Assembly (NCBI RefSeq): GCF_041381155.1 | Contig: NC_091134.1 | Span: 15,626,008-15,690,007, forward strand | From: Argopecten irradians | Taxonomy: Eukaryota > Mollusca > Bivalvia > Pectinida > Pectinidae | DNA: 64,000 bases | Direction: 5' to 3' | Part shown: piece by piece, positions 27,444 to 63,115 of the stretch | Layout: each line of letters starts with the position of its first letter | How positions within the stretch are numbered: position 1 is the stretch's first letter | Position numbers and translations under genes: made by a program | Notes under the pieces: generated by a model | Databases searched by the model: none | What the model was told of the DNA's origin: nothing | The model's input: only the letters and a program-made list of their open reading frames with translations

Positions 27444-29716
27444 TATGGTGGCTGATTACGGCCATCTCGTGTTGTTGTGTTGTCGCCTTGTCGTGTTGTC
27501 GCCTTGTCGAGTTGTCGCGGTCTCAAACTGCGACAACCCGAGATTTAACAGTTAAAATGTCGACTAGTCGCGTTTTCGAACCGCGACAAGTCGACAACAC
27601 GACAAGTCGACATTTCAAACACGCTAATTAGCGCGTACAGAATCTCGTGTTGTCGCGGTAAAATGTCGACTTGTCGTGTTGTCGCCTTGTCGTGATGTCG
27701 ACTTGTCGTGTTGTCGAGTTGTCGACTTGTCGCCTTCCTGTTACACATACGCAAACAATGGATAACACTAGCCATATTGGATTGCTAATGAAAATAATTG
27801 TGTGCATGTGTTTGTACCTAGATGAAGAAATTTGATAGCAATTTCTTTACCGAGAGTTGTCAAAGTATTTTTCTCTGAACTATGAATTTCAATAATTTGT
27901 TTATTATATGATAATCGTGTAATAATGGTCTGGTCACGCCGTCTGATTATACGCAGTAATCGTCATCTGTTAATTTTAAGGTCACTTGAACCGCTAAGGC
28001 CTAATAGTTCGAAGGCCCGTTAATCCGAAAATTAGAAAATATTGCAATTTTATGGTGGCATATTTCTGCCATCGATTTGCCGACTTACGACTTAATAATG
28101 TCGACATCGTTAAGGCATTAAGTCGACATCATATCGGAATATGTCGACATAAACAGAAGAATATGTCGACTTACCACATGTACATGCCCACATAATGAAT
28201 CCAAGATATTTATGTAGACAGTCGGTAACTCGGCGATTAATGTGTTTATGCTCGGGTGTGACACCGACTTGTCAGTTATTGATGTCGACATCTAAACTAA
28301 AAGATGTCGACATCTGGTCTTGAAAGTGGAAATCAAAGGCCACCCTTTCATAGAGCACTGTGTATATGCAGCAAAAGCCATACAGCAGAGATCGACGTTG
28401 ATTTTGTTAATTCAAGTTTTTATTCATTTGATTTAAAAAAAAAGAAAGAAAAAATGTGATCCTGCACATCCCGGCCATGAAACTGTAGCCTGCGTGTACG
28501 TAGCTGTTAGCCCGAGCTAAGGAAGTGTACAACGAATTATTAATATATATAACCGTGGGTTGAAAATTCGTTTCAAAGCTGTGTGTGTGTTTTGTTGATT
28601 GGCATTCGTACCAAGTCCATGTAGTACATACCGTACTATACTATATTAAAAGAATGAATGAAAATAAAAATAAAAAAATTAAATAAAAAAAGATTTTTTA
28701 TGTTGTATTTTCTTGTGAATCCCGAAAAAAAACAGTTACGTAATTTAAAAGCCATAAAGGTCACAGTACAGGTACACAATACACGTTGGGAAACCAGCTT
28801 TACTTGTTAGCTTGGCCTACATAAATATTTACATCCCTCGATCAGAGATTTAAATGTAAATCTCTGCCTCGATACACTTATATAAAGGCACAACGAATTT
28901 TTGTTACGGTCTTAATGGTCAGATTCAAACTTTGGGCTAAAAATCCTCCAGGGACGCGGTTTTAAACTCCCAACTCGCGATACATCTGCATCTATTTTTC
29001 GTAGTAAAAACATGCGTTCTTTGTAGTCAAACGTAGTAAAAAAAGTCACGTGCTTATACCTCATTCATGCCATTGGCCGGAATATACAATTGTATTATGG
29101 GTAACTAGTGATCACGTGATTTTGTGTTTACTTCCAAATATGGTGATAGTTTGCTTGCCATTTCTTCGGAGAAATTGATTTATTTGAAAATATTTAGACT
29201 CCAAAATGTTATTAATATTGGATGCATATCATTTGACTTGCACATATGGACTGTTTTACTATAAATAATGAACTGAAATGAGTTGTAAAACTGCCATTTT
29301 CACGTTTTGTAAATAAATTATATAATACGAATTGACCAATTCAATAGGTCTAACCGTCTAATCTAAAATCAGCGAAGATCGGCTACTCCCGGCTAAATTC
29401 GTAGAATTCTAAATTCATATTTATATATATTATTACCTGCTTTAGGGCTCAGAACATATACATATAACACAGAGAAAATAAGGCCAAAGTATGTATAAAT
29501 ACCAGGTCAGAGAAATCACTCTATTTGGAAGTAAACACACACTCATGTGATCACTAGTTACCCACTAATACAATTCCATATTTATTTCGGCCAATGGCAT
29601 GAATGAGGTATAATCACGTGACTTGTTTTACTACGTTTTACTACAAAGAACGCGTGTTTTGTACAATTATGGGGAAAATCCTCCGCGGATCGTGGTTTCA
29701 TTTCCACCATTTGAAA
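27444..29716 (+). repeat. Left inverted arm of the foldback element
   Basis: Pairs with 33109-30758. Matching landmarks include CGGTCTCAAACTGCGACAAC (outer), the ATGTCGACATC-rich block near 28100-28310, GGCCATGAAACTGTAGCCTG, GACCAATTCAATAGGTCTAA (29334) and TTTCATTTCCACCATTTGAAA at the inner edge. Inside the arm, 29020-29150 and 29510-29660 are themselves inverted copies of each other (CCTCATTCATGCCATTGGCC). Confidence 0.88.
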
Positions 29717-30757
29717 TTGTTAGCAATACTATCATATCATAGTTTATTTTCCATATTATTTCCAAACAAATAGTTATAAGCTTCCGCATAGCCCACTTAG
29801 CTTTTTGGGAATCTAATACATATGTACACATATACTAAGAAACACGGGCTTATGTGCTTACATGGCAGGTCTCAAGGCCCTCTACCAATATTGTGAATTT
29901 CATGGCCCTGGGGTCTCGGAATTTTCCCCAGGGGATAGGGTCTTTACCATAGTTTATATAGGAGACATATTTATTTGTTTGTTTAAAAGCAAAACATTAT
30001 TTATAACTGTGCATATCGGAATTCAGGTGACTGTTAGACATTCTCAACTCTCATCCATTTGTAAAAAAATCAAATTTTAACAAACTTCTTCTCCACAACA
30101 CGGTTTTTCTCATTTTACAGCAAGTACAAAAACAACAACAATCAAATTACAATCATGAATATTTTGTATTGATATTATTTTTTTTTTGCAAATTTTTCAG
30201 CAAAACAAACATGTTTCAAATTAAATTAATACACATATTTGATTAATATATTTGATCTGCATTCATTATTGAATTTAAAAAAAAAAATGAAAAAAACCTT
30301 AATAACATAGCAAAGGTACATGGTTTGTCATTTTAATCAAGGGAGATAAATCCGATTTGAAGGATTTTCCACAAAGTGGAAAAGTTAAAGCCGCATAATC
30401 CGTATCTTTCAGGGTCCGTAAATCAACAAAAGAAAATTAGGGTACATATATTATAAAAAGTTATCAACTTTCCCCTAATTACACACCCAAAAAGTCCCGA
30501 GTTCAAAAGAAATTAATTATTAAAAATTCGATATCCAGAGTGTGTTTGAATAATTCACTTTCCATGCATTATTCAACCAAAATTTAGACTGGTACATTTC
30601 CTGGTCAACATCAATTATAATTTCAACACAAATTTATTAGATGATGTTTCAAGTAATTGTCGAGTATATATACATGAACTTTGACATCTGCCATGGCACA
30701 ACATGTAATCTTCAATTTATCAATGTTTCACAATCAAAGTCTACTCTAAGCCTTCTG

Positions 30758-33109
30758 TTTCAAATGGTGGAAATGAAACCACGATCCGCGGGGGATTTTC
30801 CCAATAATGGCACAAAACACGCGTTCTTTGTAGTCAAACGTAGTAAAACAAGTCACGTGATTATTACCTCATTCATGCCATTGGCCGAAATAAATATGGT
30901 TGTATTAGTGGGTAACTAGTGATCACATGAGTGTGTGTTTATACATAATTCGGCCTTTTGATGAAGATCTTATTTTCTCTGTGTTATATGTACATGTATA
31001 TGTTCTGAAACCTAAAGCAGGTAATAATATATATAAATATAAATTTAGAATTCTACGAATTTAGCCGGGAGTAGCCGATCTTCGCTGATCCTAGATTAGA
31101 CGGTTAGACCTATTGAATTGGTCAATTCGCATTATATCATTTATTTACAAAACGTGGAAATGACAGTTTTATAACTCATTTCAGATCATTATTTATAGTA
31201 AAATAATACATATGTGCAAGTCAAAATGATATGCATGCAATATTAATAACATTTTGGAGTCTAAATATTTTCAAATAAATCAATTTCTCCGAAGAAATGG
31301 CAAGCAAACTATTACCATATTTGGAAGTAAACACACAATCACGTGATCACTAGTTACCCATAATACAATTGTATATTCCGGCCAATGGCATGAATGAGGT
31401 ATAAGCACGTGACTTTTTTTACTACGTTTTTACTACAAAAAATAGATGCAGATATATCCCGAGTTTGGAGCTAAAACCGCGTCCCGCGGGAGGATTTTTA
31501 GCCAAAAGGTTGAATCTGGCCATTAAGACCGTAACAAAAATTCGTTGTGCCTATATATAAATGTATCGAGGGATGTAAATATTTATGTATAGTAAAGCTG
31601 GTTTCCAAATGGGTATTGCGTATCTGTACTGTGACCTTTTTGGCTTTTAAATTACGTAACTGGTATTTTTCGTGATTCAAAAAAATGAAATCTTGAAAAA
31701 ATAATTGTAATATAGTATAGTACGGTATGTACCACATGGACTTAGTACGAATGCTAATCCACAAAGCACACACACAGCTTTTAAAGTGAACAGTCGGGCA
31801 AGGATGGCTAAAGTCGGTAAAAATGGTGTGAATGTATCCAGTATAATTTCTTATTTATGAAATGGAAAAATAAAATCTCTCGTCAAAATCTGTCTGCGTA
31901 CGAAGAAATTAATTTAAAGTATGGGAATTCTAAATCGTCCTCCCGGCTCACTATATGTCCTTGGTTACATTTCCACACAGCCTCGCTTTCAATGCTTTCA
32001 ACTTTTCTTTACTTTAATGGTCAGAACTGGGAAACTAAGCAGAACTTGACCGTCGTATTAATATGTGAGAACTTTTGGAAGGCCAATGAACGCATTTAGA
32101 CTGGTTTTCTTTGCCCGACTATTCACTTTAAACGAATTTTCAACCCACGGTTATATATATTAATAAATGATTATGGCCAAGAGGATGGAAATTCGTTGTA
32201 GAAAGCAGAGTCCTTTTGCACTCTAACTTCCTCAGCTCGGACTAACAGCTACAATGTGTACGTACACGCAGGCTACAGCTGCATGGCCGGGATATGCAGG
32301 ATCACAATTTTTAATTTTGTAATCAAATAAATAAAAACTTTTCTGAATTAACAAAATCAACGTCGAACTCTGCTGTATGGCGCCTTGCTGCATATACACA
32401 GTGCCCTATGAAAGGATGGCCTTTGAATTCCACTTTCAAGACCAGATGTCGACATCTTATAGTTTAGATGTCGACATCAATAATTGACAAGTCGGTGTCA
32501 CACCGAGCATAAACACTATTAATCGCCGAGTTACCGACTTTCTACATAATTATCTTGGAATCATTATGTGGGCAGGTTCATGTGGTAAGTCGACATATTC
32601 TTCTGTTTATGTCGACATCTTCCGATATGATGTCGACTTAATGCCTTAATTATGTCGTCATCATTAAGTCGTAAGTCGGCAACTCGATGGCAGAAATATG
32701 CCACCAATATAGTCTATGGTACAAGCACTGACTTCAGTTTTCTATATTCAAAGATAGTGGTTATTTCATATGATTTGCGCATGAGTAACAGGAAGGCGAC
32801 AAGTCGACAACTCGACAACACGACAAGTCGACAACACGACAACTCGACAACACGACAAGTCGACATTTTACCGCGACAACACGATATTCTGTACGCGCTA
32901 ATTAGCGTGTTTGAAATGTCGACTTGTCGTGTTGTCGACTTGTCGTCTTGTCGTCTTGTCGACATGTCGCGGTTCGAAAACGCAACAAGTCGACATTTTA
33001 ACTGTTAAATCTCGGGTTGTCGCAGTTTGAGACCGCGACAACTCGACAAGGCGACAACACGACAAGGCGACAACACAACAACACGAGATGGCCGTAATCA
33101 GCCACCATA
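30758..33109 (-). repeat. Right inverted arm of the foldback element
   Basis: Inverse of 27444-29716, interrupted by the MITE at 31783-32130. The inner palindrome pair here is 30821-30945 and 31319-31446. Over the outer ~300 bp the two arms differ mainly in the number of CGACAAG-type words. Confidence 0.88.
31783..32130. mobile_element. ~348 bp MITE nested in the right foldback arm
   Basis: The terminal inverted repeats are AAAGTGAACAGTCGGGCAA and TTGCCCGACTATTCACTTT. The equivalent position of the left arm (near 28575, AAACGAATTTTCA inverted) has no insertion, so it is an empty site. TA on both sides is compatible with a TA target duplication, although the flanking T/A runs leave the exact edges ambiguous by 1-3 bp. 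The 80-codon frame inside has no recognisable product. Confidence 0.85.
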
Positions 33110-41845: not shown

Positions 41846-44800
41846 TCACATATAACTAGCATTTCCATTAAGTTTCATTTCAACGTCTTTATCATCTTGC
41901 ATGGATGAAATTGCCGGCTTCCATTCCTTTGTAGGGTTCAATGATTTTCTGAATCTCTGAAACAGAACAGTCATCCAATGAGCTTAAATTTACTATAAGG
42001 ACATCCTATTTCAAAACTGACAAAATTAAAATTCAGTGAACAATAGTAAAATATATATCATAAGACTCCTTGCTATGTGAATATGAAGGATATTCTACAA
42101 AAGAGTCACAACCATGGGTTTTACAACAGTTTTTGAATCCGAAGGTAGAATTTCCATATCCTTCATATCCGCACGTGAAAGTGTATTTTTATTACAATGT
42201 TACAGTTATGACAGCCCGCTATCTAGGGAAATAATTTCGTAGAAAACCCACAACTGCAAATCAAATAAAAAATTCGGAAATCCATCGCCGCTGACATGTT
42301 TCAAACGTAGGTACATGTACAACAGACCACATGCATGTCACTAAATAATATAAGAAGTAAAATCGCTATATCAAATTTATTTGGCATAGAAATGCGAAAA
42401 TAGGTTGCCACATTAGTAAGTTAGTTTACAAGAATATGAACTGGGCCTAGCTTCACGAACATTCCTAACTTTTATTAACTTTAATTAAGGAATTCCTTAA
42501 CTTAAATTTCCCCGTAGAAAAGGATTACAAAAGTTAAGGAAAAACCTCAAGTCGAGGAGCCTTCCTTTAAATTTGTAATGCTTTCCTAAGGATAATTTTA
42601 AGTTAAGGAATTCCTTAAATTTAAGGAATGTTCGTGGAACTTAGCCCTGACCTGTTTTGTATGCAGAATATACATGTATATTACCTCCCTTAGGAATTTA
42701 CATTTTCTCCCTTAGGAATATACATGACCTCCGTTAGGAATATACATCACATCCGTTAGGAACATGTATCACCTCAATAGGAATATACATTATCTCCCTT
42801 AGGAATATACATTACCACCCTTAGGAATTTACATTACCTCCTTTAGGAATATGCATCACCTCACTAGTAATATACTTTATCTCCCTCAAGAATATGCATT
42901 ACCTCCCTTAGGAATATACATTACCTCCCTTAGGCTGCCATGTTGCTGCTTCAGAATGATGTACATCGTTACTGGTATAGGTATAAGAGGGAGGAAGGCG
43001 ATGATCCAGCCTATTCCTATAGACCAACCAGGGTAGGCAGTGGAACCATAGGACACAGGCTGGTGGTTGATCACTCCTATCAACCATAACCCCTGAATTA
43101 GAACATTAAAGCACTATAATAAGAAGAATACATATATATGATCAGTATCCGTCATTAACTTTAGTTGTAAATTTAGTTGGCGAGGATCAAGAATGAATTA
43201 AAGTTGCGACACAAGCTTTCTTTTCATTCTTGAGCCAAAATATATCCTGTAGATGAAGATTTTGATTAATTAACATTAATTCAAACACACCCCATACACA
43301 CACTCACAAAAACTACACAAAAACAAGACTTCAGAGGGAAAATGGTTTTTAAACATTCTTAATTATACAAATTATATAGTATTTCTGCTTTGCTTTTAAT
43401 AGTATATGCTAGTGCCATGACTTGTTTTGAAGTATCATAGAATGTAAATCATGTCTTTTTAACTTATGAAAAACAGAAACAATGAGTTGCCTTACAAAGA
43501 CCATACTCACGAAACAGAGGAAAGGCGTTACAAACTTCCAGAGAATCATCCAAAGCTTATTCGGCCGGTAACCGATCATTGCCTCGATATTGTCATAGAT
43601 ACGTCCGGAGCCTGCAAGGGAACTGATGTTTTAGAGAATAACTTTGATCAATGCTTGACGACCTTCCCTCTAATGAAAATACATGTGATTGCGTTATTAA
43701 AACGTTAACTGTATAGTACCTACCGTATACCCACGCTAGGACAATTGTTTCCGAGCCCACCAGTAACAATATCGATAAACTTGATAGGTACCAGTCTGTC
43801 AGCTGTAAGACGTACATACCGCCCTGTATAAAATGGGACAAAAGAAGTAGATATTTGTAAATACATCTGTAATCAGGGATAGGACGGTATACTATTAAAA
43901 TCGCTAATCATTAATTAAGATAATTTCTTTTTTTTGTATTAAGAAAGGAGCGAATTGTTTGTAGGAAAATACAACTTAAGTTTATATATTACCCCCTGAT
44001 TTAATTGTTTGACCGTGAATTTAAACGCTCGTTTTGCTATACATAGTCCTCAATAATTGATATCGGACAATATAAAATGGCGATTTTCCATAAATAACAA
44101 AACAAAAAACAAAAAAATACAAAAAAAATACGCCTATGTGTTGGCCTGTTGCTTGAATAACCAAGCAACGGATTTATCAAATGTTGCTTTCCCACAAATA
44201 ACATGAAGTCTCAATATCAGTGCCTGTCTGAATGTTTTATGATTTAGAAGAATATTGAAAAAAAAAAATCCTGTTGTAAATCATGGACCGGAAGTCAAGA
44301 GGAGCGATAATGATTCAGAAACATTTGATAAGAAATCAAGTAAATATTGAACCTCATTAAGTTGGTCCCATTTTTCAAACAAGCCGAAGATAGCTGACGT
44401 CGTTACTGTAAAAAACATTAGACTATCCTAACTATGTAAGGTCATTCCGAATGTTCCGAGAACGGGTCATGAACTTTCCTACTTCCGTTCGGCAACAATC
44501 GTAGCTTCTATGGTGACCAGCGGTACCATAGTTATTAAAAAAATGATTATAAATATTCCTTGATATATAAAGCTTGTTTGTGAGTGTAAAGCTCATAAGA
44601 TATACCGTAACAGGCGAGATATGTCACGTACATGTACAAGTGACCATGAAACAGCTGTCGAAATGTACATGGTCCTATGGTATGGTATGCATGATCTGTA
44701 TAACGTACCTGCATGACGAATACGATACCAATAATTGAGGAGAGTAATAAAATCACTGCGACTGTCAGTAGTCTACGGCGCCCAAATTTATTTGGCCAGG

Positions 44801-47800
44801 TATCTGTTAGCCCAGTATATAGCAGTTGCATATGAACAATCTGTGAACAAAAATGCGTGGATAACATGGAGAAAAGTAATGTAAGTCGACATCTGAAAGC
44901 TATTCAAGTCATTATGGCTTTAGAAAATGATGTATGACACGTATTTAAAATAGCTTAAAGTTAGAAGACAAAAGAGAATTCTAAGCATGAAACATGTGAT
45001 ACAGATATTTGTCTTTTGAAAATCGTGATAAATCACGTCTTTGGCTATTGTCGATAAATTCTTCAATATCATATCGCTCTTACTTTTGTCTTCTACCACG
45101 AATATTTTGTCCTTGTCTGTTTCCTAATCTGGTTAATTATAATAAAAATATGGATGTATGAAATAGAGAAGATCTTGTGAAAGTTTCGGGCTGGTAAGTA
45201 CTCAGCAAGTATGAAGAGCAATCAAAAACATCTACTTTAAGATTGAAATGTAGATAATATACCTGAGAATCTAGACCAACTGTAAACAGCATAAGGAAGA
45301 AGAGAGCTGACCAGAGCTGTGGTAACTTGAGAGTTGCCAGTGCCTCGGGGTACACAATGAACGCAATACCAGGACCTTGAACATAGTCATTTATTTACTG
45401 TATAATTGCTAATATTCCCGAGGATTTAAATTTCGCAAATGTTGCGATTTTTCCCAATTCGCGAAAACAAACGACTCGCGAAAATCAAAATTATAGTTTT
45501 CCATATCAGAGCCTGTCATATGAATGATTTTTTCAAAAGATATAATTCGCGAATATAAGCCCCCACGAAAAAGTTCTAAATAATAAATCACGAAATTTTA
45601 CACCTGCGAAATTTTAACAACTACATAGTATAAAAGAACATTAACGAATGAAAGTGAGAGTATTTGTATTTTATCAAGGTAATATCTCGTAGTAATAAAA
45701 GATGATGTTTTAATACCTTGATCAACGACGTCTTCAATCGATAAGTTCGCCTCCTGTGCCATGTATCCTAACGTTACAAATACAACACAGCCTGCAAACC
45801 AGCTGGTGAAGGCGTCAAACATCGGAATTATCATCGCATCTCTGTAAAATAGACAATGGAGTTAGTGTCAAACATAGGAATTATCATCGCATCCCTGTAA
45901 AATAGACAATGTAGCTAGTGTCAAACATTGGAATGATCATCGCATCCCTGTGAAATAGACAAAGGAGCTCGTGTCAAACATCGAATCTGTCATCGCGTCT
46001 CTGTTAATAGACAAATGAGCTAGTGTCAAACATTGAAATGATCATCGCATCCATGTAAAATAGACAAAGGAGCTAGTGTCAAACATAGGATCTGTCATAT
46101 ATAGCGTCTCTGTAAAATAGAAAATAACGCTAGTGTCAAACATCAGGATTGTCATCGCGTCCCTGTAAAATAGACAATGGGGCTAGTGTCAAAGAACTTA
46201 CATGCGTCCTTGTCAAATGGAAAATAGTGCTAATGTCAAACATCAGAATTGTCATCGCGTCTCTGTTAATAGACAAAGGAACTAGTGTCAACATCCGAAT
46301 GATCATCGCGTCTCTGTAAAATATACAAAGGAACTAGTGTCAACATCGGAATGATCATCGCATCTCTGTAAAATAGACAAAGGAACTAGTGTCAACATCG
46401 GAATGATCATCGCATCTCAGTAAAATATACAAAGGAACTAGTGTCAACATCGGAATGATCATCGCATCTCAGTAAAATATACAAGGGAACTAGTGTCAAC
46501 ATCGGAATGATCATCGCATCTCTGTAAAATATACAAAGGAACTAGTGTCAACATCGGAATGATCATCGCGTCTCTGCAAAATAGACAAAGGAACTAGTGT
46601 CAACATCGGAATGATCATCGCATCTCTGTAAAAATATACAAAGGAACTAGTGTCAACATCGGAATGATCATCGCATCTCTGTAAAATATACAAAGGAACT
46701 AGTGTCAACATCGGAATGATCATCGCGTCTCTGCAAAATAGACAAAGGAACTAGTGTCAACATCGGAATGAATGATCATCGCGTCTCTGCAAAATAGACA
46801 AAGGAACTAGTGTCAACATCGGAATGATCATCGCATCTCTGTAAAATATACAAAGGAACTAGTGTCAACATCGGAATGATGATCATCGCATCTCAGTAAA
46901 ATAGACAAAGGAACTAGTGTCAACATCGGAATGATCATCGCATCTCTGTAAAATAGACAAAGGAACTAGTGTCAACATCGGAATGATCATCGCGTCTCTG
47001 CAAAATAGACAAAGGAACTAGTGTCAACATCGGAATGATCATCGCGTCTCTGCAAAATAGACAAAGGAGCTAGTGTCAACATCGGAATGATCATCGCGTC
47101 TCTGCAAAATAGACAAAGGAACTAGTGTCAACATCGGAATGATCATCGCATCTCCTGTAAAATAGACAAAGGAACTAGTGTCAACATCGGAATGATCATC
47201 GCATCTCTGTAAAATATACAAAGGAACTAGTGTCAACATCGGAATGATCATCGCGTCCCTGTAAATTAGACAAAGGAGCTAGTATCAAACATCGGGATTA
47301 TCATCGCATCTCTGTAAAATATACAAAGGAACTAGTGTCAACATCGGAATGATCATCGCGTCTCTGCAAAATAGACAAAGGAACTAGTGTCAACATCGGA
47401 ATGATCATCGCGTCTCTGCAAAATAGACAAAGGAACTAGTGTCAACATCGGAATGATCATCGCGTCTCTGCAAAATAGACAAAGGAACTAGTGTCAACAT
47501 CGGAATGATCATCGCATCTCTGTAAAATATACAAAGGAACTAGTGTCAACATCGGAATGATCATCGCGTCTCTGCAAAATAGACAAAGGAACTAGTGTCA
47601 ACATCGGAATGATCATCGCATCTCTGTAAAATAGACAAAGGAACTAGTGTCAACATCGGAACGATCATCGCATCTCTGTAAAATAGACAAAGGAACTAGT
47701 GTCAACATCGGAATGATCATCGCGTCCCTGTAAATTAGACAAAGGAGCTAGTATCAAACATCGGGATTATCATCGCATCCCTGTAAAATGGAAAATGGCG

Positions 47801-50800
47801 CTAGTTTCAAACATCGGGATTGTCATCGCGTCCCTGAAAATTAGACACGGAACTAGGGTCAGATATCGGGAAAGTCATCGCGTCCCTGTTGAATGGAAGA
47901 TGGCGCTAGTGTCATGCCCTGTTAAAAACCGTTAATGTTAAACATCAGAATAATCATCGCGTCCCTGTAAAATGACTAAAAAACGCTTGTGTCAAACATC
48001 GGGATTGTCATCGCATCCCTGTAATATATACAAAAGAGCTAGTGTCAAAATACGGATTTGTCATTGCGTCGTCCCTGTAAAATAAAAACAATGCTATTGT
48101 TGAACATTAAAATAATGTCAAATATAGAAATTGCATTGTATATCATACATTATTATGTTCAGCCTTTATTAATGCAATATAAATCAGCATGCTTAAGGCA
48201 GAATCATAAACAACTCTGTAGACGATAATCTTCTCTAGGTTAAAAGTTGTAAAATGTTCGGGAACTGTTCCCTCCTTACGCAATTTCCACAATTTTGACA
48301 ATGGTCTTTGACTCGCTGCCGTAAACGAACCAACACGTGAACTTAATCTTAATTTTGTTGAAAATATTCGCCATAAGTCTGTTCTAAATTAGAATAACAC
48401 AAACTTCAATAGTAGGTAATTATTTTTAATTTAACAGCCTTATCCGTGTGTTTTTCTCGAGCACTTGTCAGGGGAGTCTACTTGAAATTTGACGTACAAT
48501 TGTCTTGCCATGTATGAGAAATGGAAAAAATTTGAAAAAATTGAAATGTAACAGTACCTAATAGTTTTAAATTGATCACACGATTAGGATTACAGTAGTG
48601 AGTCAGGGTGCTTAACAACTGAGCTAGCCCCCTACTAAGTTTTGTTCATGTTTGAGAGATAATCATACAGCTGTCGTGATATTGTACCTGTATATATTGT
48701 TGTGGAATTTGTTATGACTGGCCAACACGATCAAAGCACCAGACGACAGACTCAAGGAGTAAAACGTCTGTGCCGCCGCATCCACCCAAACCTGTGGAAA
48801 AAGAAACCATATAAATACTGTTAAACCTGCTATTAAGTAACATGGAAACGCGGTATACAGTACAAACTTCATAGCAGAAAACAGTTTCTACTTGATCTTT
48901 GATTTATGTTTTATCTTGCAGATGGTTTTCTCAAAGAAATCATTTCACTTTTGCCGGATCTGATGAAAGCATATGCATATCGAATCGAGTCTGACTGTCG
49001 GTATGCTCCATATTCTTACAGATCAGAATAACTTTTACACATACTATAAAACTTCTCTTTTTTTCGCCTGCGATTTATTGAAATCGTGATCAAGGAATAT
49101 TTGCGAAAGTTTATTATCTTCAACATTGTATTGAAAGGTATTTCCATTTAACTTTTGTTCGCGAAACTAATAATCTTCACAAATATGTTTTGAATTGGAA
49201 TTCGAGAAATTCTGTAGTCTCGAAAACAAATTAGTTTACAGCATAAATGTATACAATAATTACACATCGTAAGTGCAAATATTTACGTCTAACTTGAGGA
49301 GTTCCTGCCATCTGGGCAGCATGTAGTACTTAAATCCTTGTATAGATCCTGGCAGTGTTAACCCCCTGATCAGCAGAGCTGTCAGGAACACGTACGGTAT
49401 TGATGCCATTACGTACATAACCTAATAACAGTTAAAAAAATAATACATTCTTAGGGTATCAGATATGTACCATTGGAAACAAGACTTATTAGCATATGTC
49501 TAAAGATATAAGAATCTAAAAAGATCTCCCCAAATGTTCCTAATGAGAAAGAAATATTGTAGTACATTGTATAACATATCTCTTAATCTTATTTGAGAAC
49601 CTCTGAAAGATTCCGAAGTGTTATATAACCTGTTTTTTCAAAGTCACACTGGATATTTTTTTAAATACCTGCATTATTCATTATCTTATAGGCAAATGAT
49701 AACATAAAAATACAATACGATCTACAAAACATTTTAAATGTAAACGTTATGATTACATACCGGTGTTACCTGACGAAATTAAGAACGGATAGAAAGTAAT
49801 GTGTAGACATACCTTTCCTGAAGAATGAATTCCTTTGATTAGACAAAGAAAGATGACGATAGAAGTGGCGAGCACCCCTAGGAGTAACTCCCAGCGAACT
49901 GTCCCCATGGTCTGTATACCTTCGGTTAGCTGTAGGACATTGTTCCTGAAGTTAGTAATGCCATCATTAATAAACATTTAATCATAGTCTAAATTGAAGG
50001 ACGCCAATATAAATGACAATAATTACTATTTATTAAGTCTAAGGTTTAAATTGAAAAAAATATAAAGGAGTAAAAGATTTTTAGAAACAATCTGAAATGC
50101 GACGTTTTTTTCTTTGATGCTAAATCGGTATCACATACGATACGTTTTATTATTTGTTTCAAATGATAAATAAATTGACATATGTTGTGATTCAAATGAG
50201 AGGGTTGTATTAGATAAATCTACAATTTCTGTTAGTTTCAATTGAAGAGACGGGAAGATGTGTTGGAATTATTTGTTTTTAATCACTTTATTGGAAAAAC
50301 AGTCCATTATACCCATGGATACCTGAACTCGGTTAGCAGGTACTAGACTTTTTTATTTTTGGTATCGATCAAACAACGTTGTGTACTATCACTATACTCG
50401 CATGTGTTATAGATTGAGCGCACTCACATTGAATGCCAATTCACACAATGTAATACCTTTTCCTTGGATATGACATTATAAAGTCTCATTAACGATTAGT
50501 GAAATTTGATTAAGAAACCTCTCTGGTGTGGTTTCAGTCTCGTCAAAATCTCGATTCATCCTTGGTCAATGAGTTTTCGTCTTTTTTACAAAAAGATATT
50601 TGTCTCTATTTGCAACAAGTTTGGCATATGAAAAATGTATCAAAGTAAGATTTCTACTGCTGGCAGAATATTAAGAAATAACATCAGTTTCACGTTGTTT
50701 TTAAACCTTTAATCCGTTGAAATCAAATCTTCGATCTGCATTGTAAAGGGAGTAGGAATATAATATGTTACTTTTCTGAGCAAATATAATTGGTTTACTT

Positions 50801-53800
50801 TTGAATAACAGTAACAGTTATATTTTTTAAAAGAATTAACAAAACACTGGTTTTTGTCATATCTTCAAAAAATTATACCTAACAAACACCCAATTCTTGG
50901 GCGGTCAAAACCATGGAAATCTGGTAAAAATACACATTACAACCTGTGTTAATTCATTATAATTCACTCAGAAAGTTTCATTAATTCCATTTCCAAATCC
51001 AATGTGTATCTTCAAAAACTATTCAAAGAATAATTTCTCATTCCATATAAGAATATCGTTAAAATATTTACTAAACGATTTTTTAACTTCCACTGTCAAC
51101 TTAAAATTGACCGATTTTCAACATTATAATCTAAATAGGTCAAACAAATATCAAACTACCGATGGGAAAGGACTAAGCCTATACGTGGTTATCGCTCAGC
51201 ATACAGGGAGTAGGACGACTGGTTCGCTCGTTGTCAGTATAATGTGACCGGATGGGGTGTGGGTTGCTTGGTGATATAGCACTATAAAAAGGGCAACAGT
51301 TCCACTATACAAGAAGACACAACATGAATATAACGCATTCTCCCTAAACACGCACCTCGCATATCATACACGCAGCACACCACATACATGGGAGGACGTC
51401 CTTACATGACCATAGCTGTTAATAGGACGTTAATTAATCAAACAAACAAACAAACAAAAGCGAGTAACCAGCAAGTACTTCACCCATTCAATGCGTATTC
51501 TGTCTGATAACTGTGTCAGTAAGTTTAACATTAAAATAGGATAATATCATATATTAAAATTGCGTGATTTATCTAATAGATACACTATCAGTTAGTATGG
51601 ATGTTAGGAAAGCCTTATACTGTTCATTGATAATGCTATACTCTCATTGCGTGATATGGACTTTTGATAAGTACATACAATGTATATACACTGAAGATGG
51701 TGATTTTGTAAGATGTGTAAATGGCAAACGATGTTCTGATGACCTCATACAGTTATATAGTCAAACCAGATAGTTGTCAAACAGAAAGTACACTTTGTTT
51801 AAAATATACAAATATACAGATAATTATTAAAAACGGAGAATACGAAACAACTCCGGAGTTAAATCGATTGATTATTGTCCTGAAATACCATTTTAACTCG
51901 TCTGTTATCACTGAACAGCATAATATTTGTCCGTTCTACTTATTATGGATCTATAAAAATGCAGGAAAGTCGTACTTAATTCATGACTCTTTTATCCCAT
52001 TGGATTGAAATTGTTTTTATGGTTTATTTGACACACTTGAAGGTACGTGGCAAATGCTTTTAGTCATGGCAATTTCTGTTTCGCACAGCTTTGTAAGAAT
52101 TCCAAATCTAATCAAGTCATTTGAGTTGAACAGAAATCAACGCTAAGACATTTGATCTTATTACAGGTGCTTGAAATAAATAAAAAATAATCGTTGTGAT
52201 GAAATAAATTAAAAAGGAAAGTTTCTAAATTAAAAAAAAATCATTATAGTTGAATCAGGGATGTACTATATATTACAAATACAACAATTTGATCACTAAA
52301 TAACACTTTTGAAAATTTGATGGATTTGGAGATCGAAAGAGACATACATAATCCTTTCGCCAAAGAAAAACAGAATGCCAACAAAATATGCTGAAAGAGT
52401 AAGTCTACAATTAAAATAACAAATAGACGGAATGAAAATATAAGTTCTCCGTTGTATGGGAAAAAAACTAAACTTACTCCCAGAATTCCTCAGATGGAGG
52501 TTTGCGTGTAATATTAGTATCTCCGTTGATATAAGTGTTATTTATCAACATGGATTCGTTTCCGGTTCCGTTGCTATACATCCGAGTTCTTACAGAACAT
52601 ATTTCTGTGTTCCAATCATTACCACACGTGGACCAAGGTACGGTCGGGAAGAAGGAACTTCCAAAGTAGTAAAGGGTCCAGGATAGGATCACTGAATAGT
52701 AGGTCCCTACTATGAAGGTCAAGGTCATCATTCCATAACCAATTCCTGTATAAAATCAATGATATTCTTTGACAGTGTGCCATTATGTACATTTTTTATA
52801 CATTAATATAATGAGTGAGTATGTTTAACTTCTTTTATCTTAGAGTTATGTTGGTTTCCATGGAAACTTTTTATCATATTTTGAAACTTAACGCATCTAA
52901 TCTTGAACCTTTTCTCAAATTAATACGTATTATTACGAAATTTCTACTCGTTATTACTTATGATTATCATTAACCTTGTTAACTTTCGAAACGCAGAAAT
53001 AACAACGTTTCTGTCAATCAATAGTATGCAGATATTTACTGAGCTGCGTGGTATCTGATATATTATTTGAATGGTGATACATGTACATTAGATGAACAGC
53101 AGACCCGTATCATACCGGTACCTTTGAACAATGGACAACATTCCCAAACTTTTCCTGGTCCGAGATTTGAGTACTGGGCGTACGAAAATTGCAGAAAGAC
53201 ACATGGTGTTCCGATAAGGAACAGACACAGGAAGTATGGGATGAGGAATGCACCTGCAACAGTAACAAGTTAAATAAAGATTGAAGGCATATTATAACTC
53301 GACGTTTTAGAATAGATATTTCAGTATGTCGTCTTCTTATTGATAAAGTCAAGTAGGCGTAAGGCTACCTGTGTAACATTAATGGCAAAATACATGAGGC
53401 CACAGAATTTTGTATAAATCAAATGAAATAAAACAAATTTAAAACATTGTTATCATGTTTCATCTCATTTCAAAACCCCATTCGAATGCACGACGTGATA
53501 TCAGGTATTCATATTGCAGTCTAAGGGTGATTTAGTATTTAAGTTATAAGTGTAAAAGGTAGATATATATTCCATGTCTCCGGGAACATAATTTATTTAC
53601 AAGTGTGGTTTAGGGGTACTATTACGAGACAGATATTAAAATCATATTTTCATATTTTACTTCTAGCGAAAGAAATGTATAAGTTCGGTTTCGCTGTCCT
53701 ACCGCCGTAACAGGTGTTTCACGATGATAGGACCACGTAATAGTTTTTGTCAGTACAGAAAGGTTGATATGAATCAGCGAGACAAACAATTTCAACAGTG

Positions 53801-54981
53801 TATACTATAATAAAAGTCTAGTCCTGATAACGACATCAAATTTCATTTGCTTATCTAAATATGGAAATATTTTGTAATAACAGAATATCATATACTTTTA
53901 GGTAGTTCGAAACTTTTTATGGATTATTTATCATTCGTGTAATAAGAATTTAGCACGAATAACTAACAAACAGCTATTGCAATTCCTTATTGTTTGCTTC
54001 GTAAGTGCAACGAGCGGTAATAATAATAATGCATTTTGGAAGATTAGATCAGAAGGACAGTCGAGATTTGTTCCTGTTCAGACGTGGAAAGGAAGGCATA
54101 TATGATTGCACATGCATTGCTATGTGGGTTTTTTTCACGTAATCGTTTGATTTGTATTCCTCTCACATTCCCATCACCTTCAGTGTACCTTTATGCGGGC
54201 CAATAAGAGTGATTTACATGAGAGGTTGTAGATATTTGTCACAACTGTTATAAGATAGAAGAATGCTCTAACAAAATATATAAATTGAGATATAAAGTTT
54301 GTAACAGGAATATTATTAATATGTACATGGAGGATGATAAAATGGTACGGACTAAGGTAAATGTTGTCATGAAGTTGTTTGGAAATTTTGATAACACTGA
54401 AACTCAAACGCGTATTATGATTTTTATTTTATTTTTTACATTGATTGTGAAGCAAATTTTTGTGTCTGCATATTTAATTCCATTGAAAACGCTTTCAAAT
54501 TTCAAACACAGTTTTGATATACTTGATGGAAATTTCCGGAAACAACTTCGGTTTTATTTTTTATTAGTTTAACGTCATGGTAACAGCTAGAATATGAAAA
54601 ACGTTACAGATCACTGCACATTCAGCTTTGAAGTGCTTCTCACGTGAAAATTGTCTCGCAAACACTTGCAAACTCTATGATGCATTTGAAATAATGATTT
54701 AATGCGATAACCCTGGATTACGACATCAAAACAAATCTTTGCTTTATTTCGACCCTAATGACTTGTCGAATGAGTTGACTGTTATTTCACTGTCTTAGTT
54801 ACTAAATAAGTATGAACATGTATGTATGAGAACAGACAATGGAACTGAAACACCTACCCCCTCCGTTCTTGTAACAGATATACGGAAATCTCCAGATGTT
54901 ACCCAGTCCAACAGTTACTCCAATGCAAGAAAACAAAAACTCCAGTCGGTTAGACCAGTTTCCACGCGACTGGTTCGCCAT
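41846..54981 (-). CDS. SLC6-family Na+/Cl--coupled amino-acid-type transporter, complete
   Basis: Thirteen coding exons, 5' to 3': 54981-54858, 53253-53122, 52745-52478, 49945-49813, 49421-49287, 48791-48688, 45841-45717, 45375-45263, 44840-44709, 43823-43724, 43611-43511, 43092-42925 and 41956-41846. The sum is 1746 nt (581 aa) with every junction GT/AG and in phase. TM1 has [19 protein letters not shown]; the glycine before LGN, rather than Asp, points to amino-acid-like and not monoamine substrates. The second extracellular loop has the Cys pair ([11 protein letters not shown]) and four N-glycosylation sequons. TM6 has [17 protein letters not shown]7 [13 protein letters not shown]8 TVGLDSQ with the Na2 Asp-Ser, and TM12 ends in [19 protein letters not shown]. 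The short C-tail is [14 protein letters not shown]...NASYM. Substrate cannot be assigned. Two splice-junction minisatellites lie in its introns. Confidence 0.97.
42443..42647. mobile_element. ~205 bp MITE in the SLC6 last intron
   Basis: The ends GGGCCTAGCTTCACGAACAT and ATGTTCGTGGAACTTAGCCC are imperfect inverses, and the interior repeats AAGGAATTCCTTAA on both halves. It is non-coding. Confidence 0.8.
42667..42932. repeat. 22 bp minisatellite built from the exon 12 splice donor
   Basis: About 12 units of TTAGGAATATACATTACCTC(CC). On the transcribed strand each reads CTAAGGGAG|GTAATGTATATT, identical to the end of SLC6 exon 12 plus its donor at 42925. The first unit overlaps the exon boundary; the rest extend downstream into the intron with 1-5 changes each. 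Confidence 0.92.
45405..45615. repeat. TTCGCGA-rich dispersed repeat
   Basis: The segment is rich in TTCGCGAA-type words in both orientations (AATTCGCGAAAACAAACGAC, CTCGCGAAAATCAAAATTAT, AATTCGCGAATATAAGCCCC). Similar word clusters occur at about 49060-49220 and 61880-62060, always in introns of the SLC6 genes. It is probably an old repeat family. Edges are not determinable by eye. Confidence 0.45.
45842..48125. repeat. 52 bp minisatellite built from the exon 7 splice acceptor
   Basis: Roughly 43 units of a 52 bp sequence in SLC6 intron 6. On the transcribed strand each carries CTATTTTACAG|AGATGCGATG followed by ATCATTCCGATG, matching the last intron bases and the first ~25 coding bases of exon 7 (R-D-A-M-I-I-P-M), then a short spacer TTGACACTAGTTCCTTTGT. 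Central units are near-identical; units at both ends are more diverged, as expected for an array homogenised in its middle. Open frames here such as 46511-46723 are repeat artefacts. Confidence 0.95.
50516..50720. repeat. Diverged relative of the 36753 element
   Basis: Shares a GGTTTCAGTC(T/C)CGT..AA(A/G)TCTCG block and neighbouring AT-rich context with the left end of 36753-37772. The right end was not found. It lies in SLC6 intron 3. Confidence 0.35.
51392..51459 (+). mobile_element. SINE family A, 3' tail fragment
   Basis: GGACGTCCTTACATGACCAT, then AGCTGTTAATAGGACGTTAA, then (CAAA)n. Matches the 3' end of the SINEs at 6983 and 60977 but lacks the tRNA head. It is in SLC6 intron 3. Confidence 0.75.
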
Positions 54982-62197: not shown

Positions 62198-63115
62198 AAG
62201 AAAAATATTGTTTTAAATGAGTATGGCGAACTATTCCTCAATATTTAAGAGTATGGCAACTATTCCTCATATGATTTAAACGGGTATGGCGAACTATTCC
62301 TCCAAATGATTTTTAAACGAGTATGGCGAACTATTCCTCTATATGATTTAAACGGGTATGGCGAACTGTTCCTCCATATGATTTAATATTCCCATGTATG
62401 GCGAACTATTCCTCATTATGATTTAAACGGGTATGGCGAACTATTCCTCTATATGATTTTAAACGAGTATGGCGAACTATTCCTCCAAATGATTTAAACG
62501 AGTATGACGAACTATTCCTCATTATTGCTTTAAACGGTATGCGAATATTCTAATTTAAACAAGTATATCGAACTATTCCTCCATATGCATTTAAACGAGT
62601 GTGGCGAACTATTCCTCCAAATGATTTAAACGAGTATGACGAACTATTCCTCATTATGCTTTAATTGAGTATAGCGAACTATTCCTCCATATGATTTAAA
62701 CAAGTATGGCGAACTATTCCTCCATATGATTTAAACGAGTATGGCGAACTATTCCTCCATATGATTTAAACGAGTATGGCGAACTATTCCTCTATATGAT
62801 TTAAACGAGTATGGCGAACTATTCCTCCAAATGATTTTAAAGGGTATGGCGAACTATTCCTCTATATGATTTAAACGAGTGTGGCGAACTATTTCTCTAT
62901 ATGATTTAAACGAGTATGGCGAACTATTCCTCTATATGATTTAAACGAGTATGGCTAACTATTCCTCAATATTATTTAAATGAGTATGGTGAAACTATTC
63001 CTCTATATTATTTAAACGAGTATGGCGAACTATTCCTCCCTATGATTTAAATGAGTATGGCGAACTATTCCTCTATATGATTTAAACAAGTGTGGCGAAC
63101 TATTCCTCCATATTT
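62198..63115. repeat. ~34 bp minisatellite in the second SLC6 gene's intron
   Basis: Roughly 27 units of GAGTATGGCGAACTATTCCT followed by CCATATGATTTAAAC. The middle units are nearly identical and the left units carry small deletions. Unlike the other two arrays, the unit does not resemble a visible splice junction. Confidence 0.92.

What the first reader, a model, noticed from the sequence alone, without database searches (positions are those of the whole stretch)
45717..48125. About 43 decoy 3' splice sites amplified from the exon 7 boundary
The 52 bp unit carries the exact exon 7 acceptor and the first ~25 coding bases. In transcript order all decoys come before the real acceptor, so the spliceosome must scan a 2.2 kb field of near-perfect copies. 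A minisatellite that duplicates a splice site this many times is striking and could cause variable splicing or copy-number effects on transporter expression.
Basis: partly seen in the sequence, partly recalled or inferred. Interest (0 to 1): 0.85.

Follow-up and report, generated by a model that had tools for sequence, protein, structure and literature searches.

The report
Splice-site minisatellite in a scallop transporter
In a scallop transporter gene the DNA at the start of one exon, splice signal included, has been copied about 43 times into the intron before it; such "mirage" repeats were already known from amphioxus, but similar ones turned up in several other genes of this genome and could serve as a natural test of how cells pick the right splice site.

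Summary
Upstream of exon 7 of a minus-strand SLC6 transporter gene lie 43 tandem copies (48101-45870) of the exon 7 acceptor (about 25 intron and 28 exon bases), followed by the real one. 36 of 43 keep AG in place; by an acceptor matrix from the same genome 29 of 43 score at least as well as the real site. A second array in the same gene (42680-42934), not in the finding, repeats the exon 12 donor; 8 of its 11 decoys keep GT. This is a known kind: amphioxus "mirage" minisatellites, with human parallels. New are the setting (bay scallop, by myosin identity), the copy number, both site types in one gene, and recurrence: 7 of 39 arrays in sampled SLC6 loci cross a splice site, and a myosin gene has 26 copies. 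They are not clearly enriched at boundaries (4.8 expected, P=0.14). Most likely the arrays are tolerated by-products of dense minisatellites, the copy next to the exon body being the one used. Variable splicing and copy-number effects could not be tested; use of any of 42 decoys examined would bring a premature stop.

The parts
45870..48101 (-). Array of 43 decoy copies of the intron 6/exon 7 boundary (units 2-44 in transcript order)
   Evidence: TRF and cyclic alignment
46290..47755 (-). Homogeneous core of the array (units 9-36, mostly 52 bp)
   Evidence: Pairwise column identity 0.95 in the core, 0.70 in the 15 outer units
45817..45869 (-). The real acceptor unit: last copy, runs into exon 7; the only unit with CTAAC
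45717..45841 (-). Exon 7 (125 nt)
   Evidence: SLC6 homology, reading frame, AG/GT
48688..48791 (-). Exon 6, upstream of the 2846-nt intron that holds the array
42925..43092 (-). Exon 12, whose donor (GGGAG|GTAATG) is the real site of the second array
   Evidence: Reading frame into exon 13, GT
42680..42924 (-). Donor array: 11 further copies of the exon 12 donor, 22-bp unit, 8 of 11 keep GT
   Evidence: TRF 42680-42934, 11.7 copies; sequence; motif list
41846..54981 (-). SLC6-type transporter gene, 13 coding exons from the ATG to the stop
   Evidence: PF00209, PDB relatives, open joined frame

Best explanation
It is a 'mirage' minisatellite. A short tandem duplication that straddled the intron 6/exon 7 boundary grew, by slippage or unequal exchange, into 43 extra copies inside intron 6; a second, independent one did the same at the exon 12 donor. 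Copies can pile up without harm only on the intron side, so the functional site is the copy that touches the exon body. Normal splicing most likely still uses it because it is the acceptor closest to the exon 7 donor (exon definition), perhaps helped by a cleaner branch region (CTAAC, no AG close upstream). Rare decoy use would give mRNAs with early stops, open to decay. Shown here: the anatomy, the acceptor quality of the decoys, the stops on decoy use, the homogeneous core and diverged edges, recurrence in other genes. Inferred: the growth mechanism, correct splicing, exon definition, decay.
For: Unit anatomy and copy count. Core homogeneous (58 of 378 pairs identical), edges diverged (0 of 105), the typical pattern of tandem-repeat turnover reported for mirages (PMC3087553). 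AG columns of the decoys are not more conserved than other columns (ranks 27 and 19 of 53), so no sign that decoys are kept as sites. Arrays of the same kind in other genes: L019, L020, L028, L031, L037, L064, L095. Their number fits random placement of dense arrays (7 seen, 4.8 expected, P=0.14). Three paralogs (L009, L010, L062) have the exon 7 acceptor with no array over it. Reported normal splicing of amphioxus mirages. Sites closest across the exon are favoured in large introns (PMC9225289).
Against: No RNA evidence for correct splicing in this animal. PMC9225289 section 9 reports an overall preference for the upstream 3' site, reduced rather than clearly reversed in the exon-definition class; that would favour decoys. 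The branch argument is weak: CTAAC is not enriched upstream of 87 acceptors of this genome (2 against 2 in a control stretch). In L031 and L037, 9 of 17 and 14 of 17 decoys match the real site at all 28 bases compared, so there sequence over that stretch cannot explain the choice.
Confidence: 0.83

Rival explanations
1. Leaky 'poison' field: a measurable share of transcripts splices to decoys, gains an early stop and decays, so transporter output falls as copy number rises.
For: Decoys score as well as the real site (29 of 43); a premature stop follows for 42 of 42 decoys examined; many unannotated intronic sites can be used (PMC10809524, abstract); a TERT intron 6 VNTR is linked to splicing (PMC11830802, start of abstract in the listing).
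Against: Amphioxus mirages reported not to disturb splicing; AG columns not specially conserved; the branch region of the decoys differs.
Confidence: 0.12
2. Intermediate in intron or exon gain: one copy is on its way to becoming a new exon or a new boundary, as proposed for amphioxus globins.
For: Model proposed in PMC3087553; human repeats at exon-intron boundaries can form novel introns (PMC2812944).
Against: AGGT does not occur in the array and GTAAG occurs once, so decoy acceptors lack a paired donor; decoy use brings stops.
Confidence: 0.02
3. Assembly artefact: the array was inflated or misjoined during assembly.
For: Only one assembly was at hand; PMC3087553 reports a wrongly assembled mirage in an amphioxus draft.
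Against: Edge units are diverged and core units of several types are mixed, and similar arrays recur in other genes; this is not what stacking one read would give. The exact copy number could still be wrong.
Confidence: 0.02

Closest known systems
Amphioxus 'mirage' minisatellites (globins BflGb6 and BflGb9, Adh3; PMC3087553; also troponin C and PGBD5, PMC3902484; founding paper Canestro 2002, doi 10.1093/nar/gkf386, cited there, not held)
   Same: Tandem minisatellite-like copies of an intron-exon boundary with the splice signal, at 3' or 5' boundaries, extra copies intronic, homogenised centre and excluded edges
   Different: Reported 10-72 bp (Adh3) or 150-160 bp (globin) units; 3 and 6 units in the two BflGb6 haplotypes; here 43 extra copies, two boundaries of one gene, a mollusc; splicing and length instability not tested
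Human CBS 31-bp VNTR, c.1444_1467+7, 16-21 copies (PMC2630376, passages)
   Same: The unit crosses an exon end, as in the exon 12 donor array here
   Different: Donor only and polymorphic in people; scallop polymorphism unknown
Human internal tandem repeats at exon-intron boundaries in duplicated genes (PMC2812944, outline and passages)
   Same: Minisatellites across exon-intron boundaries
   Different: There linked to novel introns and alternative transcripts; no transcript evidence here
Tandem dual-specific splice sites of polyubiquitin UBC (PMC10809524, abstract)
   Same: A tandem array of splice sites made by a repeat
   Different: Coding repeats with AGGT sites used in both ways; here AGGT is absent from the array and the copies are intronic

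Membership tests
Mirage minisatellite | Tandem repeat units that span an exon-intron boundary | tested here: met
   44 units for exon 7 acceptor, about 12 for exon 12 donor
Mirage minisatellite | Units carry the splice signal (many, not necessarily all) | tested here: met
   36 of 43 AG in place; 8 of 11 GT
Mirage minisatellite | Homogenised centre, diverged edge units | tested here: met
   Pairwise 0.95 in core against 0.70 at the edges
Mirage minisatellite | Regular splicing not disturbed | not testable with these tools
   No RNA data
Mirage minisatellite | Length instability between haplotypes or tissues | not testable with these tools
   One assembly only
Dual-specific splice-site array (UBC type) | AGGT at each repeat | tested here: not met
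   AGGT found 0 times in 45800-48125, transcript strand
SLC6 (sodium:neurotransmitter symporter) gene | PF00209 match across spliced exons | tested here: met
   E=2.4e-42 for exons 6-8, 9.7e-18 for the ATG exon

The most novel reading that the evidence does not exclude
Scallop genes carry many boundary minisatellites with up to dozens of intact, sometimes identical, splice sites, and a share of these is really used; array length then tunes output of the host gene through mRNA decay and varies between individuals, making splice-site minisatellites a widespread source of expression variation in this animal.
Probability: 0.12. Interest if true: 0.8.

Novelty: new member of a known kind. Interest (0 to 1): 0.5.

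Why it matters
Arrays of near-identical acceptors before one exon are a natural experiment on splice choice: 'closest across the intron' predicts the first copy, exon definition the last. L031 and L037, where 9 of 17 and 14 of 17 decoys match the real site at all 28 bases compared, are the cleanest form of it. The sample suggests that such arrays are not rare in this genome: minisatellites cover 10% of the sampled SLC6 bases and 9% at the myosin loci. Gene prediction, short-read mapping and expression studies could be misled at these places. In the papers listed by ten searches (several lists were capped at 10-25 of more than 100 papers) I saw no report of boundary minisatellites from a mollusc; an abalone gene has an intron minisatellite (PMC6905558, passages), whose distance to the splice sites I did not see.

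Tried and rejected
Branch-site explanation: only the real unit has CTAAC, but CTAAC is not a preferred motif upstream of 87 acceptors of this genome, so it stays a minor factor.

Boundary hot spot: the placement test gave 7 observed against 4.8 expected (P=0.14). Two of the seven (L031, L037) fill their locus and carry probability 1; without them it is 5 against about 2.8 (my subtraction). Some loci overlap (for example L026 and L039 hold the same 55-bp array), so some arrays count twice. L023 was left out because it looks like an unplaced copy of L022. Three acceptors (L020, L031, L037) were added by hand because the automatic projection missed them. L027 counts as a boundary array although its second copy has lost AG. 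The acceptors used for the matrix come from automatic projection and may hold a few errors.

L087 (myosin) looked like a donor array, but by my reading it starts about 19 bases into the intron; L079 has only two to three weak donor copies; neither is counted. L033's 15-bp repeat lies inside coding sequence.

Unit finding by fuzzy pattern found only 4 hits and was replaced by cyclic alignment. A COX1 search for the species found nothing. Two muscle myosin exons, 208 of 208 residues identical to PDB chains 1dfk and 1dfl (alignments shown; 1b7t, 1kk7 and 1qvi have the same score), point to the bay scallop; that these entries are Argopecten irradians, and that this species has 16 chromosomes, is recalled. 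One search shows 16 contigs of 34-73 Mb or, for C1, 75.5 Mb, then a drop to 1.1 Mb.

Full report
What is there. The window lies on contig C1 of an 846 Mb genome with 16 chromosome-sized contigs. Two joined muscle myosin exons of this genome are identical over 208 of 208 residues to PDB chains 1dfk and 1dfl, which I recall to be from the bay scallop, Argopecten irradians. A minus-strand gene of 13 coding exons (54981 to 41846) encodes an SLC6 transporter (PF00209; best solved relatives an unnamed 'Transporter' and glycine transporter 2). The frame stays open through the 13 joined exons.

The acceptor array. Exon 7 is 45841-45717. In the 2846-nt intron before it a cyclic alignment resolves 43 decoy units (48101-45870), then the real unit (45869-45817). 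A unit holds about 25 intron and 28 exon bases. The middle (units 9-36) is homogeneous (pairwise 0.95, 58 of 378 pairs identical); the 15 outer units are diverged (0.70, 0 of 105 identical).

How good are the decoys? A matrix from 87 acceptors of SLC6 genes of the same genome (11 of them from this gene, exon 7 left out) gives the real site 7.3, the 32nd percentile of true sites. 36 of 43 decoys keep AG in place, 29 of 43 score at least as high as the real site, 36 of 43 reach the 5th percentile of true sites, 9 of 43 the median. Of 419 other AGs in the gene's introns 3.1% reach the real site's score. Two features differ. CTAAC occurs only in the real unit. And 42 of 43 decoys have another AG within 24 nt upstream, mostly at 20 nt, against 28 of 89 true acceptors; the real site has none. 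CTAAC is not enriched upstream of true acceptors, so I do not lean on it. The AG columns of the decoys are not more conserved than the rest.

What would decoy use do? Exon 6 was joined in a script to 42 of the 43 decoys (those with an AG within a few bases of the homologous place; unit 41 had none). All 42 gave a premature stop, 41 of them inside the retained array; the exception is by its numbers unit 44, the last decoy, whose stop falls in frame-shifted exon 7. AGGT does not occur in the array and GTAAG once, so decoy acceptors lack a paired donor.

A second array in the same gene. After exon 12 (end 42925) a 22-bp unit, CCTAAGGGAG|GTAATGTATATT, repeats the donor: the real one first, then 11 decoys, 8 with GT (counted by eye). 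The geometry mirrors the acceptor array: extra copies lie on the intron side, and the functional copy touches the exon body.

How common is it here? Sampled were 39 SLC6 loci (31 of the 32 fetched, L023 left out, plus 8): 133,157 bases, 13,558 of them in 39 arrays. 82 acceptors and 77 donors were placed automatically, 3 acceptors by hand. Seven arrays cross a splice site: L019, L020, L027, L028, L031 and L037 at acceptors, L064 at a donor. Copies that keep the dinucleotide, real one included: 4 of 4, 12 of 12, 1 of 2, 2 of 2, 18 of 18, 16 of 18 and 6 of 6. L031 and L037 share an 87-bp unit and are probably one event older than the gene duplication. Thirty myosin-head loci (97,512 bases, 41 arrays) gave one strong case, L095: 60-bp copies, 26 of 26 with AG, the array running to the edge of the locus. 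In one search only arrays near the main exon match were inspected, so this is a lower bound. A placement test that slides each array through its locus expects 4.8 boundary arrays among 39, against 7 seen (P=0.14). So the simplest reading is dense minisatellites that also hit boundaries, not a mechanism that seeks them. The window's own gene was not in this sample. Three paralogs (L009, L010, L062) have the same acceptor with no array over it.

Known relatives. [quoted passage not shown] PMC3902484, one passage). The founding paper is not held. The human CBS 31-bp VNTR has the unit c.1444_1467+7, across an exon end (PMC2630376, passages). Human duplicated genes carry repeats at exon-intron boundaries that can make new introns (PMC2812944, outline and passages). 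The scallop arrays meet the sequence criteria of a mirage; splicing and length variation could not be tested.

Mechanism. PMC9225289 (abstract and section 9) concludes that within large flanking introns the sites closest across the exon are favoured; for 3' sites it also reports an overall upstream preference, which is reduced, not clearly reversed, under exon definition. Here the real acceptor is the one closest to the exon 7 donor, and the real exon 12 donor the one closest to its acceptor. I therefore think the arrays are tolerated, with perhaps a low leak into decay. This step is inference.

Verdict. Observation confirmed, interpretation partly supported: a member of a known kind, unusually large, doubled within one gene, and recurrent in this genome.

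Noticed in passing
27444-33109: About 5.7 kb of nested inverted repeats (the five longest arm pairs 94-99% complementary, 169-235 nt each) with TGTCG-type 8/16/24-bp arrays near both ends; looks like a foldback DNA transposon.
   Followed up: partly
62212-63113: Another minisatellite (35 bp, about 26 copies) upstream of the gene; a 301-base piece of it matched only this place in the genome.
   Followed up: partly
L033, L062 (C1 near 15.692-15.698 Mb): A second SLC6 gene on the plus strand just outside the window; its large exon holds a 15-bp coding tandem repeat (L033 1690-1774).
   Followed up: partly
L020 2459-3249: A second large array (47 bp, about 17 copies) lies next to the 60-bp acceptor array of that SLC6 gene; origin not worked out.
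   Followed up: no
L031 1-1571 and L037 1673-3243: 87-bp acceptor arrays in two SLC6 genes about 28 kb apart in opposite orientation; 9 of 17 and 14 of 17 decoys match the real site at all 28 bases compared.
   Followed up: partly
L095 1657-3186 (C5 near 36.366 Mb): 60-bp acceptor array, 26 of 26 copies with AG, at a myosin-head exon (RCNPYFVRCIKPN).
   Followed up: partly
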